Source: a virus
IMG/VR virus record: IMGVR_UViG_3300045453_000085
Span: 1-39,335 of that record
Reading direction: 5' to 3' (one strand)
Length of the DNA: 39,335 nt
Shown: positions 3,177 to 11,083 of the stretch, one piece after another
How the letters are laid out: each line of letters opens with the position of its first letter
Position numbering within the stretch: position 1 is the first letter of the stretch
The notes under the pieces: model-generated
Told to the model about the DNA's origin: nothing
The model's input: the letters and a program-made list of their open reading frames with translations, nothing else
Database searches by the model: none
Translations under genes and position numbers: made by a program

Positions 3177-5188
3177 TGTCGAAGTGGTTCACGCTTCGCG
3201 AGCTCGCCTCGCTTGCCCTGCCCGGCCTGCCGAACACGGAGCGCGGCATGCAGCTCCGGGCCCGCCGCGAAGGTTGGGCCGACCCTGCGCGCCAGTGGCC
3301 GCTCGACGAGCGCGGCACCTGGCGCCGGCGTCGCGGTCGCGGCGGCGGGATCGAGTTCAGCCCGGCCGTGCTGCCGCCGGAGGCGCGTCTTCGCCTCGAG
3401 ATGGCGCCGGCGATCGCCGCCATCACGGGAGGGCAAGCAGTCGGCTCGGCTCATGAGCCTGCGGTCGGTGCGGAACCTGTCGGCATCGACCCGCCCTCTC
3501 CCGAGCGCGCCGAGCTGTGGCGCCAGTTCGAGCGGCAGCCGCAGCACCGGAAGGACGAGGCGAAGAAGCGCATGGAGCTGCTGCTGGCCGTCGAGCGCCT
3601 GGCCGATCACGGCACGGCGCGCTGCACGGCCTTCACGATGGTGGCGGCCGAGTCGGGTGTCGCCGAGCGCACGCTCCGCCTGTGGCGCAACAAGGTCGAC
3701 GGCGTGGAGCGCAGCGACTGGACCGTTTACCTGGTGCCGCGCCACGTCGGCAGCCGCGGGCGCGAGAAGCCGATCGACGGCGATGCCTGGGACTTCATCC
3801 GTACCGATTACCTTCGCGTCGAGCAGCCTCCTTTCGAGAGCTGCTGGCGCCGTCTCGAGCGCGTCGCGACCGAGAAGGGCTGGACGCTGCCGTCGAAGAA
3901 GACCATGGAGCGCCGCCTGCAGGCGCTGCCGCTCAGCGTCCGGATCGCCGGGCGCCAGGGCATGGAGGCGCTGAAGCGCCTCTACCCGGCGCAGCAGCGC
4001 GACCGCTCGATCTTCCATGCGCTCGAGGCGGTCAATGCCGACGGCCATAAGTGGGACGTCATGGTGCGCTGGCCGGACGGCACGATCGGCCGACCCCTGA
4101 TGGTCGCGTTCCAGGATCTGTTCAGCGGCAAGGTGCTGAGCTGGCGCATCGACCGCACCGAGAACAACGAGACGGTGAGGCTGGCGCTCGGCGATCTCGT
4201 CTCGACCTACGGCGTGCCCGACAAGGTGTGGCTCGACAACGGCCGCGGCTTCGCCTCGAAGATGCTGACCGGCGGGACGCCGACCCGCTTCCGGTTCAAG
4301 GTCCGCGAGGAGGACCCGGCGGGCATCCTGACGACGCTCGGCATCGAGGTTCACTGGACGACGCCGTACTCGGGGCAGAGCAAGCCGATCGAGCGCGCCT
4401 TCCGCGATTTTTGCAGCGACATCGCCAAGGACCCGCGCTTCGCCGGCGCCTGGACCGGCAACACGCCGATGGCGAAGCCCGAGAACTACGGCTCGACGGC
4501 GGTGCCGATCGACAGGTTCGTCGCCGTGGTCGCCGAGGGCATCACTCTGCACAACGCCCGCGCCGGCCGTCGCACGGACGTCTGCAACGGCCGCTCCTTC
4601 GACGAAGCCTTCCACGAGTCCTACCGCGCTGCGCCGATCCGCCGGGCCACCGAGGAGCAGCGCCGTCTGTGGCTGCTCGCCGCCGAGGGCGTGCGCTCGC
4701 GTCGCGACGGCTCGATCGAGCTCCTGGGCAACCGCTATTGGTCCGAGCAGCTCGTCGACCACGCCCAGCAGAAGCTGATCGTGCGGTTCGACCCACAGCT
4801 CCTGCACGGCGAGATCCACGCCTACCGGCTGGATGGCTCGTTCATCGCCAGCGCCCCGGTCATCGAGGCCGTGGGCTTCGCCGACGTCGAGAAGGCCCGC
4901 CTGCACGCCCACAAGCGCAGCGCCTGGCTGCGCGCACAGCGCGAGATGCTGGAGGCCGAGCGCGTCATCGGAATCGACCAGGTCGCCGCGCTGCTGCCTC
5001 GCGTCGACGACGCGCCGGTGCCCGAGCCCACCGTTCTGCGCCCGATGTTCGGTGCCGGCGGGACCGCGTTGGCCATGCAGCCGACAGCCTTCGAACAGAA
5101 CGATCCGGAACAACGCGGCCAGACCGGCATCAGGAACTTCCTGAAGCTGGTGCGCGCCGAACAGGAAAACGGCGCCGACGAGATCTAG
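3176..5188 (+). CDS. MuA-like DDE transposase
   Basis: This 670-residue protein is close to MuA's 663. The N terminus (WFTLRELASLALPGLPNT) matches the Mu DNA-binding winged-helix domain that recognises the enhancer. The catalytic RNase H-like core has Asp289 (NADGHKWD), Asp354 (WLDNGRG) and Glu406 (KPIERAFRD). The 65- and 52-residue spacings resemble those of MuA D269/D336/E392. The segment after the core fits the MuA beta-barrel and C-terminal ATPase-contact region. It cuts and joins phage ends for integration and replicative transposition, working with the downstream MuB-like ATPase. The ATG at 3176 is chosen because it overlaps the upstream stop and gives the expected N terminus. Confidence 0.96.
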   Translation: MSKWFTLRELASLALPGLPNTERGMQLRARREGWADPARQWPLDERGTWRRRRGRGGGIEFSPAVLPPEARLRLEMAPAIAAITGGQAVGSAHEPAVGAEPVGIDPPSPERAELWRQFERQPQHRKDEAKKRMELLLAVERLADHGTARCTAFTMVAAESGVAERTLRLWRNKVDGVERSDWTVYLVPRHVGSRGREKPIDGDAWDFIRTDYLRVEQPPFESCWRRLERVATEKGWTLPSKKTMERRLQALPLSVRIAGRQGMEALKRLYPAQQRDRSIFHALEAVNADGHKWDVMVRWPDGTIGRPLMVAFQDLFSGKVLSWRIDRTENNETVRLALGDLVSTYGVPDKVWLDNGRGFASKMLTGGTPTRFRFKVREEDPAGILTTLGIEVHWTTPYSGQSKPIERAFRDFCSDIAKDPRFAGAWTGNTPMAKPENYGSTAVPIDRFVAVVAEGITLHNARAGRRTDVCNGRSFDEAFHESYRAAPIRRATEEQRRLWLLAAEGVRSRRDGSIELLGNRYWSEQLVDHAQQKLIVRFDPQLLHGEIHAYRLDGSFIASAPVIEAVGFADVEKARLHAHKRSAWLRAQREMLEAERVIGIDQVAALLPRVDDAPVPEPTVLRPMFGAGGTALAMQPTAFEQNDPEQRGQTGIRNFLKLVRAEQENGADEI

Positions 5189-5201
5189 TCGTCGGCGCCG
5201 T
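5169..5201 (+). terminator. 13-bp perfect inverted repeat at the transposase stop codon
   Basis: The arms ACGGCGCCGACGA (5169-5181) and its exact complement (5189-5201) enclose a 7-base loop that contains the TAG stop of the transposase. No U-tract follows, so it is not a canonical intrinsic terminator. A hairpin here could reduce read-through into the MuB-like gene, protect the transposase message, or be a DNA site. Role inferred. Confidence 0.5.
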
Positions 5202-5247
5202 AACGACGGGCCTCAAGCCCACCGCAGCACTGGAGGAGTTAGCATAC

Positions 5248-6216
5248 ATGAACGACGCACATAACGAAACGACGCTGGACGATGCCGCGATCGCGCGCAT
5301 CCGCAGCGACGCCAACAGCGTCATCGGCGGCGAGAAGATGACCCAGCGAGCCGCGGCCGATGAGGCGAACATCCCGGCCGGCACCTTCAACGCCTTCATC
5401 AACGGCAGCTACGCCGGCGACAATGCCCGCGTCGCGGCCGAGGTCGCGAAGTGGCTGGAAGCGCGGCGCAACCGGAAGAGCATCAAGGCCATCGTCCCGA
5501 TCGCTCCCGCCTTCCTGCAGACCAAGACGGCCCAGCAGATCGTCGAGCTGCTGACCTGGGCGCAAACGCTCTCGGACTTCGGCGTCATCGTCGGCTCCCC
5601 GGGCACCGGCAAGACCTGCGCGCTCGAGTACTACCGTGCGGCCAATCCCGCGGTGTTCGTGGCCACCATGGAGCCGGCGAAATCGAGCGTGCACCATCTG
5701 CTGTCCGAGCTGGCCAGCACGGTGAAGGCCTCCGAGCGTAGCGCCGTGGCGATCGCCGATGCCGTCGTGCGCCGCCTCAAGGACCGCCAGGCGCTGCTGA
5801 TCGTCGACGAGGCCCAGCACCTGCAGAGTGCCGCGATCGACCAGCTCCGCACCGTGCACGACAAGGCGCGCTGCGGCGTCGTCCTGGTGGGGAACGAGAG
5901 CATCGTCGCCAAGCTGGGCGATCCCGAGCGCACGCCGCAGCTCGCCCAGCTCTATAGTCGCATCGGCCTGCGGCTGAATCTGGCGCGCGCCGCCAATGCG
6001 GACGTCGACGCGCTGCTCAAGGCCTGGTCCGTCGAGGACAAGGAAGAGCGGCAGTTCATGAAGCTCGTCGCCTCCAAGCCCGGTGCGCTGCGCGCCCTCA
6101 CGAAGACGATGATCGCGGCGACGGCGATGGCCGCCGGCAACAAGGAGCCGCGCACGATCGCCCACATGCGCGATGCCTGGAGCCGCGTCGGCGCCGGGCC
6201 GATCGGCAACAGTTGA
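5248..6216 (+). CDS. MuB-like AAA+ ATPase, transposition target selector
   Basis: This 322-residue protein is close to MuB's 312. The N-terminal ~70 residues form a helix-turn-helix (MTQRAAADEANIPAGTFNAF), as in MuB. The ATPase core has Walker A GSPGTGKT (116-123) and Walker B LLIVDEAQ (Asp187, Glu188). The C-terminal part after about residue 250 fits the MuB helical DNA-binding domain. MuB forms ATP-dependent filaments on target DNA, delivers the target to the transpososome and gives target immunity. The ATG at 5248 follows a GGAGGAG Shine-Dalgarno at 5232. Unlike most genes of this operon it is separated from its upstream neighbour, by 59 bases that follow a strong hairpin. Confidence 0.94.
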   Translation: MNDAHNETTLDDAAIARIRSDANSVIGGEKMTQRAAADEANIPAGTFNAFINGSYAGDNARVAAEVAKWLEARRNRKSIKAIVPIAPAFLQTKTAQQIVELLTWAQTLSDFGVIVGSPGTGKTCALEYYRAANPAVFVATMEPAKSSVHHLLSELASTVKASERSAVAIADAVVRRLKDRQALLIVDEAQHLQSAAIDQLRTVHDKARCGVVLVGNESIVAKLGDPERTPQLAQLYSRIGLRLNLARAANADVDALLKAWSVEDKEERQFMKLVASKPGALRALTKTMIAATAMAAGNKEPRTIAHMRDAWSRVGAGPIGNS

Positions 6217-9964: not shown

Positions 9965-10036
9965 TAGCCGCCTTGACTTCCTCCAGAGCTGCGCGCACCG
10001 TTTGGCTGGGCCTGAACAGCCTAATCGTGAGCGGTC

Positions 10037-10059
10037 GGTCGCCCGTAGCGGCCATTTTT
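10037..10059 (+). terminator. Intrinsic terminator or attenuator
   Basis: The stem GGTCGC (10037-10042) pairs with GCGGCC (10048-10053, including one G-U pair) around the loop CCGTA and is followed by ATTTTT (10054-10059). This is the clearest rho-independent terminator shape in the window. It lies about 75 bases after the last early gene and just upstream of the structured leader, so it could end the early operon or attenuate transcription into the RAMP-like locus. Confidence 0.6.
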
Positions 10060-10087
10060 GTTGCCCACGCCGGTGGAGGCGCGGGGT

Positions 10088-10210
10088 CCATCGGTGCATG
10101 TCCAGGGCGCGAGCCTAAAGACCGATGGGGTCGCCTTACGACGACTGTTCAGCCCCGCGCTGCGTCCGTTGAACCCGGACGCGACGCGCCCTTGAACGCA
10201 AATCGTAAGG
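10088..10210 (+). ncRNA. Two-domain structured leader RNA that pairs the ribosome site
   Basis: Two consecutive folds are visible. Domain 1: CCATCGGT (10088-10095) pairs perfectly with ACCGATGG (10121-10128) and encloses a small GGGC-GCGA-GCCT hairpin (10105-10116) with a GNRA tetraloop. Domain 2: CCTTACGA (10134-10141) pairs perfectly with TCGTAAGG (10203-10210). Nested inside it are GTTCA/TGAAC (10147-10151/10193-10197) and a 13-nt arm pair with a two-base internal mismatch (10156-10168/10176-10188) around the loop TTGAACC. The last arm contains AAGGA (10207-10211), the ribosome site for the gene starting at 10221. It is therefore either a cis-acting switch or a discrete RNA. The pairing is seen directly and the function is inferred. 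Confidence 0.55.
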
Positions 10211-10220
10211 ATCAACCTAC

Positions 10221-10406
10221 ATGTTCATCATCGATCCGCGGCACCCGTGGCCGCTCGAACAGCGTCTTGCCGTCGGCGGGGTACTCGATCTCGCCCGAGC
10301 GGCCCTCATCCATCCCGAACTCTTCACTGCTAACGCCCGCAGCGCCGCTGCCAGCCTGCTCCGCTCCGTTGAGCGGTGGCTCGCCGAGAAGGAACCCAAA
10401 GCATGA
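10221..10406 (+). CDS. Small protein ahead of the RAMP-like gene, unknown
   Basis: This encodes 61 residues with a helical core (RLAVGGVLDLARAALIHPEL) and no recognisable family. Its ribosome site AAGGA (10207-10211) is in the 3' arm of the long leader stem, so translation may depend on that stem opening. It overlaps the RAMP-like gene by ATGA, so the two are probably made together. It may be a partner or a leader protein for it. Confidence 0.6.
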   Translation: MFIIDPRHPWPLEQRLAVGGVLDLARAALIHPELFTANARSAAASLLRSVERWLAEKEPKA

Positions 10407-10975
10407 TGATCGCCGTCGAAATCTCTTCACTCTCGCCGCTACTGATGTCGCGGTTTCACGAAGCGGCGGAGGCGAGCGTCAACGGTACCTCGTCGCCGGT
10501 GATGAACGGCCGGCGCCTACCGCCGCGCGAGGCGGCCGAGCGCTCCGCCTATCGCACCGACAAGGGCGACCTCTACCTACCGGCGGCGAATCTCCTAAGC
10601 GCCATCGTTCAGGCGGGCCAGTTCACGAAGGTCGGCCGCAAGCAGCTAACCACGGCAAAGTCGTCGATCGTGCCGGCAGCCGTCGGGCTCTCGCCGCCCG
10701 AGCTGATGTTCGGGACCAGAACCTTCGAGGTGGACAGCCGGCCTGTCGTAATGGCGGCAGCCGGCGGCGCGCGGGTGATGCGTCACCGGGCCAGGCTCGA
10801 CGAGTGGAAGTTGCGCTTCGACTTGTTGTTGGACGAGACGATGATCGCGCCCGAGGCGGCGCGGCAACTGGTGGACGATGCCGGCCGCAAGATCGGCATC
10901 GGGGATTTCAGGCCGGCTCGGCGGGGCCCCTTCGGGCGCTTCGTCGTGACGGGTTGGAAGGAGCGGAGAGCCTAG
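10403..10975 (+). CDS. RAMP/Cas7-like phage protein
   Basis: This 190-residue protein belongs to a phage-associated family I recognise by pattern rather than by name. Features are an N-terminal strand ending SPLLMSRF (residues 11-18), PREAAERSAYR (41-51), LYLPAANLLSAIVQAG (57-72), VDSRPVV (110-116), and near the C terminus the glycine-rich GIGDFRP (165-171) and GPFGRF (175-180). A ferredoxin-like strand pattern plus a C-terminal glycine-rich loop recalls the RAMP superfamily (Cas7, Cas5, Cas6), which binds RNA. This assignment is inference. It is followed within 24 bases by a strict pentanucleotide array and a perfect hairpin, and preceded by a structured leader. No Cas nuclease or CRISPR array is present. 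Confidence 0.6.
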   Translation: MMIAVEISSLSPLLMSRFHEAAEASVNGTSSPVMNGRRLPPREAAERSAYRTDKGDLYLPAANLLSAIVQAGQFTKVGRKQLTTAKSSIVPAAVGLSPPELMFGTRTFEVDSRPVVMAAAGGARVMRHRARLDEWKLRFDLLLDETMIAPEAARQLVDDAGRKIGIGDFRPARRGPFGRFVVTGWKERRA

Positions 10976-10998
10976 GCTTCCGCTTCTCGGCGCCGCTT

Positions 10999-11058
10999 GG
11001 CCAGGCAAGGTCGGGCATGGCTCGGCTCGGCCGGGCGAGGTGCGGCAAGGCACGGGGC
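10999..11058 (+). repeat. Degenerate pentanucleotide array, GGYNN with exact 5-nt period
   Basis: GG occurs at exactly every fifth base twelve times in a row: 10999, 11004, 11009, 11014, 11019, 11024, 11029, 11034, 11039, 11044, 11049 and 11054. The third base of each unit is C (nine times), T (twice) and G in the last. The last two bases vary freely: CA, AA, CG, AT, TC, TC, CG, GA, GC, AA, AC, GC. A weaker unit starts at 10989. The array begins 24 bases after the stop of the RAMP-like gene and runs straight into an 11-bp hairpin. It has no ribosome site or start codon, so it is probably non-coding. Periodicity 5 rather than 3 also argues against codon selection. Confidence 0.85.
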
Positions 11059-11083
11059 CCGGTGTGCGCCAACACACCGGGCC
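11056..11083 (+). other. Perfect 11-bp hairpin capping the pentamer array
   Basis: The arms GGCCCGGTGTG (11056-11066) and CACACCGGGCC (11073-11083) are fully complementary around the six-base loop CGCCAA. No U-tract follows, so it is not a normal intrinsic terminator. It starts within the last array unit and ends 19 bases before the gemA start. It could be the 3' stabilising or processing element of an array RNA, or regulate gemA translation. Confidence 0.7.

What the first reader, a model, noticed from the sequence alone, without database searches (positions are those of the whole stretch)
10999..11083. Strict 5-nt-periodic GGYNN array ending in a perfect hairpin, directly behind a RAMP-like gene
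Twelve GG pairs sit at exactly 5-base spacing (10999 to 11054), with a near-constant third base (C or T in 11 of 12) and freely varying last two bases. The array starts 24 bases after the stop of the RAMP-like gene and runs into a perfect 11-bp stem (11056-11066/11073-11083). Period 5 excludes codon selection, and the varied dinucleotides exclude simple slippage of one unit. Cas7-type proteins bind RNA with a short fixed periodicity, so a pentamer-periodic RNA with a stable 3' hairpin beside such a protein suggests a dedicated ribonucleoprotein: the protein would coat the array, with GG as contact points and NN as variable content. This would be a new type of phage-borne RNA-protein system.
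Basis: partly seen in the sequence, partly recalled or inferred. Interest (0 to 1): 0.9.

Follow-up and report, generated by a model that had tools for sequence, protein, structure and literature searches.

The report
VIPR guide-RNA locus in transposable phage
The periodic GGYNN stretch is almost certainly the guide RNA of a VIPR system, a recently described phage weapon in which a small CRISPR-related protein uses such an RNA to find the DNA of rival phages; here it sits in a Mu-like transposable phage, so it is a real but not a new kind of system.

Summary
Twelve GG pairs sit at exact 5-nt spacing (10999-11055), eleven with C/T third, running into a perfect 11-bp hairpin (11056-11083), 23 nt behind the ORF 10403-10975. 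Chance does not give this.

It is a member of VIPR (Viral Interference Programmable Repeat), described in a 2026 preprint (PMC13142463): a ~20-kDa RAMP protein (Vipr) plus vrRNAs of 9-16 YNNGG repeats with a 3' tail, whose NN pairs read DNA with a 1-nt skip. The window protein belongs to the family of the experimentally studied SUSP1 Vipr (PDB 36pp, profile E 1.9e-43). Its model (pLDDT 89.7) has a Cas7/Csm3 fold (Z 13). Of 80 relatives found by protein alone, 75 have same-strand arrays within 1 kb, 0 on the opposite strand.

Additions here: a B3/Mu-like host phage, a single array with a perfect hairpin tail, no recognised accessory gene, no target found, and a close relative (L130) whose arrays read AGYNN instead of GGYNN.

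The parts
10403..10975 (+). vipr gene (RAMP/Cas7-like protein, 190 aa, P0001)
   Evidence: phrog_4652 E 1.2e-17; family profile matches SUSP1 Vipr at 142.8 bits and PDB 36pp at E 1.9e-43; model pLDDT 89.7 with Csm3/Cas7 fold, Z 13.1
10996..11055 (+). vrRNA repeat tract: 12 YNNGG units (GG at 10999-11055, period 5), NN = TT CA AA CG AT TC TC CG GA GC AA AC
   Evidence: same association in relatives
11056..11083 (+). 3' tail of the vrRNA: perfect 11-bp hairpin with a 6-nt loop, no T-run behind it
10221..10406 (+). 61-aa ORF whose stop overlaps the start of vipr; possible accessory gene, unproven
   Evidence: no Pfam or PHROG match; no relative in held VIPR loci

Best explanation
This is a minimal VIPR locus: one vipr gene followed by one vrRNA. 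The transcript from about 10996 to 11083 is a guide RNA. Vipr subunits line up along it, probably one per 5-nt repeat, holding GGY as scaffold and presenting each NN pair; the hairpin is the 3' tail. The complex looks in double-stranded DNA for a site reading xTTxCAxAAxCGxATxTCxTCxCGxGAxGCxAAxAC and blocks transcription there, most likely in a competing phage or prophage of the same host. Shown here: the array, the hairpin, the protein family and fold, the conserved and strand-specific gene-array association. Inferred from the homologous SUSP1 and P. fulva systems: expression of the RNA, formation of the RNP, the 1-nt skip rule, transcriptional repression. The one-subunit-per-repeat detail is inferred from Class 1 CRISPR backbones. 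Unknown: the target.
For: Array and hairpin. Homology to SUSP1 Vipr, itself shown to bind vrRNAs: 142.8 bits, PDB 36pp E 1.9e-43, same PHROG. Cas7/Csm3 fold. 90 of 120 loci found by the array pattern alone carry a homologue; 75 of 80 loci found by protein alone have a same-strand array, 0 of 80 opposite strand, 0 of 80 at periods 4, 6, 7. Among near-identical arrays differences fall 0, 0, 4, 19, 32 on columns G, G, Y, N, N (GG is fixed by selection of the arrays, so only Y against NN is informative). Unit number 11-12 lies in the published range 9-16.
Against: No target was found with the 1-nt skip rule, and the rule gave no excess in 1.7 Mb of held loci; the host is unknown, so these tests are weak. 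No recognisable vap gene. The tail hairpin is not shared with most relatives: 5 of 407 arrays have a perfect stem of 9 bp or more directly behind them, and the same stem occurs elsewhere as a terminator-like hairpin. The closest relative, L129, has a broken array. No expression data.
Confidence: 0.9

Rival explanations
1. The array is a cis-acting element: the protein binds it as the TRAP protein binds its (G/U)AG repeats, and array plus hairpin regulate the downstream phage genes (GemA position, Mor) by attenuation or translation control, without guiding to other DNA.
For: Array and hairpin lie 5' of the next genes in the same orientation; in relatives many arrays end just before a ribosome-binding site. 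TRAP also reads a repeat of about 5 nt (own knowledge).
Against: NN pairs are hypervariable while Y is kept; many relatives have several different arrays in a row, which regulation in cis does not need; the homologous SUSP1 system acts as a DNA-targeting guide complex; the fold is Cas7-like, not TRAP-like.
Confidence: 0.06
2. The array is a DNA element (recombination site or packaging signal) bound by the protein as DNA rather than transcribed.
For: Arrays lie in gaps between genes.
Against: Arrays are on the same strand as the gene in 75 of 80 relatives and never on the opposite one, as expected for a transcript; SUSP1 arrays are transcribed and co-purify with Vipr.
Confidence: 0.03
3. Chance or slippage repeat without function.
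For: Period-5 repeats can arise by slippage in GC-rich DNA.
Against: 12 units against a simulated maximum of 7; variable NN; the same strand-specific association in relatives.
Confidence: 0.01

Closest known systems
VIPR system of Escherichia phage SUSP1 (PMC13142463; Vipr at KT454805 28474-29061, PDB 36pp)
   Same: Homologous Vipr, YNNGG arrays on the same strand, structured 3' tail, phage-borne.
   Different: SUSP1 has four vrRNAs and a vap gene and a pseudoknotted tail; the window has one array, a simple hairpin and no recognised vap. The window protein lies in another clade. Transposable B3/Mu-like phage instead of an Ounavirinae phage.
Class 1 CRISPR backbone subunits (Csm3/Cas7 of types III-A and VII)
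   Same: Fold of the protein (Z about 13) and the principle of a backbone on a guide RNA.
   Different: About 12 % identity; period 5 instead of 6 nt (own knowledge of Cas7); no CRISPR array or other cas genes found here.
TRAP RNA-binding protein (own knowledge)
   Same: Protein oligomer on RNA triplets repeated about every 5 nt.
   Different: Different fold, no variable guide content, acts on its own operon.

Membership tests
VIPR system | Vipr protein: homologue of SUSP1 Vipr | tested here: met
   142.8 bits with the family profile; PDB 36pp E 1.9e-43; phrog_4652 shared
VIPR system | RAMP fold (RRM core, glycine-rich loop, thumb), about 20 kDa | tested here: met
   190 aa; model pLDDT 89.7; Csm3/Cas7 matches Z about 13; conserved GIGDFRP..GPFGRF motif. 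The thumb was not inspected separately.
VIPR system | vrRNA with 9-16 YNNGG repeats, GGY constant, NN variable | tested here: met
   11-12 units
VIPR system | Structured 3' tail after the repeats | tested here: met
   Perfect 11-bp hairpin directly behind the array; it is not the SUSP1-type tail
VIPR system | vap accessory gene beside vipr (typical, not universal for the minimal function) | tested here: inconclusive
   No match to SUSP1 vap family and no recurring neighbour; a 61-aa ORF overlaps the start of vipr
VIPR system | Array transcribed as a small RNA that co-purifies with Vipr | not testable with these tools
   No expression data
VIPR system | Target sites that match NN with a 1-nt skip | tested here: inconclusive
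   No match in viral or genome contigs with exact patterns; host unknown
CRISPR-Cas (Class 1) | Repeat-spacer array with other cas genes | tested here: not met
   No repeat-spacer array in the tandem-repeat list; neighbours annotated are phage genes, no cas genes

The most novel reading that the evidence does not exclude
The clade of this Vipr (window, L129, L130) includes a change of scaffold code: L130 has AGYNN arrays upstream and downstream of its vipr gene, the downstream one ending in a hairpin. Vipr proteins of one clade would then read different scaffold bases, giving guide systems that are blind to each other's RNAs, and the residues that differ between P0001, L129 and L130 would set that choice. 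The preprint mentions 'a related consensus' for some types, so part of this may already be known.
Probability: 0.45. Interest if true: 0.6.

Novelty: new member of a known kind. Interest (0 to 1): 0.5.

Why it matters
VIPR is the first reported RNA-guided DNA recognition with a noncontiguous code and is proposed to predate CRISPR. A member in a transposable phage with one gene and one guide in under 700 bases is a compact case for study, and its sibling with AG-based repeats offers a direct way to find the residues that read the scaffold. It also shows that a reader of raw sequence alone recognised the essence of this system.

Tried and rejected
Tandem Repeats Finder does not report the array, as the variable NN keep it under threshold. 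tblastn of P0001 in annotated phages found nothing credible and a single-sequence search of viral contigs found nothing; a profile was needed. Rfam: no match in the window. Target searches with the 1-nt skip rule: 10 NN in viral and genome contigs, 9 NN from either end, 8-NN core; the two 8-NN hits match none of the other four NN and are taken as chance. Self-targets in the window: nothing above shuffled controls for any skip, except the array itself at skip 3. All-against-all test of the skip rule in held loci: no excess. Host identification through the major head protein failed. The window's tail stem used as a probe found two unrelated hairpins, one of them terminator-like (L211, L212), so it is not specific to VIPR. 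Relatives cannot be drawn for a virus record, alignment A1 was too diverse as a search query, and the first array script failed on an index error and was rerun. Rejected readings: CRISPR array, coding repeat, chance.

Full report
OBSERVATION. The sequence is as described. From 10999 the dinucleotide GG recurs every 5 bases 12 times (last at 11054), the third base is C or T in 11 of 12, and the last two bases vary. The best period-5 GG run on the other strand has 4 units, and 300 Markov simulations of the window never exceeded 7. A scan for degenerate arrays found no other good one on either strand. The 11-bp perfect stem at 11056-11083 is real, though the window has four other perfect stems of 11 bp or more, so the hairpin alone is not extraordinary. 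No T-run follows it.

THE PROTEIN. The ORF 10403-10975 (190 aa, P0001) matches phrog_4652, unknown function, and no Pfam family. The 60-row family alignment shows invariant glycines and a C-terminal motif GIGDFRP..GPFGRF, which I read as the glycine-rich loop of RAMP proteins. The AlphaFold2 model has mean pLDDT 89.7; its best matches among solved structures are Cas7/Csm3 backbone subunits of type VII and type III-A CRISPR complexes (Foldseek E 5e-7; Z 13.1 over 162 residues). A profile search of PDB sequences gives one clear hit, entry 36pp 'SUSP1 Vipr protein', E 1.9e-43 over nearly the full length.

THE ARRAY IS A GENERAL PARTNER OF THIS PROTEIN FAMILY. Most arrays there have variable NN and often end just before a ribosome-binding site and start codon, or in a further array. 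90 of these 120 loci carry a homologue of P0001 by iterated profile search. The reverse test starts from the protein: of 80 loci found by protein patterns, 75 have a same-strand GG array of at least 7 units within 1 kb, none has one on the opposite strand, and none has such runs at periods 4, 6 or 7. These loci include near-identical contigs, so they are not 80 independent cases, but they spread over many subclades of the tree. In 19 pairs of near-identical arrays, differences fall 0, 0, 4, 19, 32 on the columns G, G, Y, N, N; arrays were selected by their GG, so only the contrast of Y with NN is free of selection.

WHAT IT IS. A literature search found the match: PMC13142463 (bioRxiv, April 2026) reports VIPR systems. 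A phage RAMP protein, Vipr, binds vrRNAs of 9-16 YNNGG repeats with a 3' tail; the NN pairs recognise double-stranded DNA with one skipped base between pairs; natural targets are satellites and prophages; the complex represses transcription and can be reprogrammed. A search for further papers on it found no other. The window locus meets the features that sequence can test: a Vipr homologue, an array of 11-12 YNNGG units beside it, and a structured tail. SUSP1 Vipr itself is matched by the family profile (142.8 bits) and belongs to the same PHROG.

SETTING. The window is a transposable siphophage of the Mu/B3 kind: repressor, Ner-like repressor, ParB-like protein, transposase, transposition protein and Mu Gam-like protein; Mor activator and endolysin; terminase, portal, head and lambda-type tail genes. 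The closest named relatives of its head protein are Pseudomonas phages Bise, Ps60 and JBD67, and of its transposase mainly phages of alphaproteobacteria. The VIPR locus lies in the early region between the Gam-like gene and Mor. There is one array only, and none of the neighbours recurs in other held VIPR loci or matches SUSP1 vap, so this looks like a one-gene, one-guide system. The preprint mentions systems with one vrRNA; its supplement could not be read to assign a type.

TARGET. The predicted site is xTTxCAxAAxCGxATxTCxTCxCGxGAxGCxAAxAC. No exact 10-NN match exists in viral contigs or in the species genomes, nor a 9-NN match from either end in viral contigs. The two 8-NN matches do not extend. 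The host is unknown (the head-protein search in genomes failed), so this is weak evidence against a target. A test of the skip rule with 279 arrays against 1.7 Mb of held loci was flat: too little sequence, and not the right competitors.

NEAREST RELATIVES AND A VARIANT. In the tree the window protein groups with L129 (52 % identity) and L130 with support 100/96, away from SUSP1. L129 has a shortened, interrupted GGY array. L130 has no GG array but AGYNN arrays upstream and downstream of its vipr gene, the downstream one followed by a hairpin. Within one clade the scaffold dinucleotide has therefore changed from GG to AG, while the period and the variable NN stay. The preprint says some types use 'a related consensus'; whether this is the same cannot be told from its main text.

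VERDICT. Shown here: array, hairpin, family, fold, association. Inferred by homology: expression, RNP, DNA recognition with a 1-nt skip, repression of rivals.

Noticed in passing
L130: about 3549-3613, about 3890-3975 and 4582-4646: Period-5 arrays with AGYNN instead of GGYNN around a Vipr homologue 44 % identical to the window's; the downstream one ends in the hairpin AGCCCTGGTACATAAAATACCAGGGCT.
   Followed up: partly
L024, L037, L113 (arrays at 2461 -, 9846 +, 652 -; strand-wise coordinates): Arrays followed at once by perfect 10-16 bp hairpins like the window's, but without a recognisable Vipr in the stretch held; possible orphan vrRNAs, a remote or very divergent Vipr, or chance arrays.
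   Followed up: partly
L211 769-795, L212 5862-5890: The window's tail stem GGCCCGGTGTG/CACACCGGGCC recurs in other viral contigs as a hairpin without an array, in L211 followed by a T-run like a terminator.
   Followed up: no
L070, L120, L208: Contigs with very many or very long arrays (11 arrays in L070, 10 in L120; a 47-unit array in L208), perhaps large guide repertoires.
   Followed up: no
window 9965-10220: Gap of about 250 bases with no likely gene just upstream of the 61-aa ORF and vipr; no GGYNN array and no Rfam match in it.
   Followed up: no
Pseudomonas phage LESphi2 (OQ594955) 4906-5466: A hypothetical protein that is a Vipr homologue of a known Pseudomonas aeruginosa prophage (31 % identity to the L129 protein, E 2e-14); arrays there were not looked at.
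   Followed up: no
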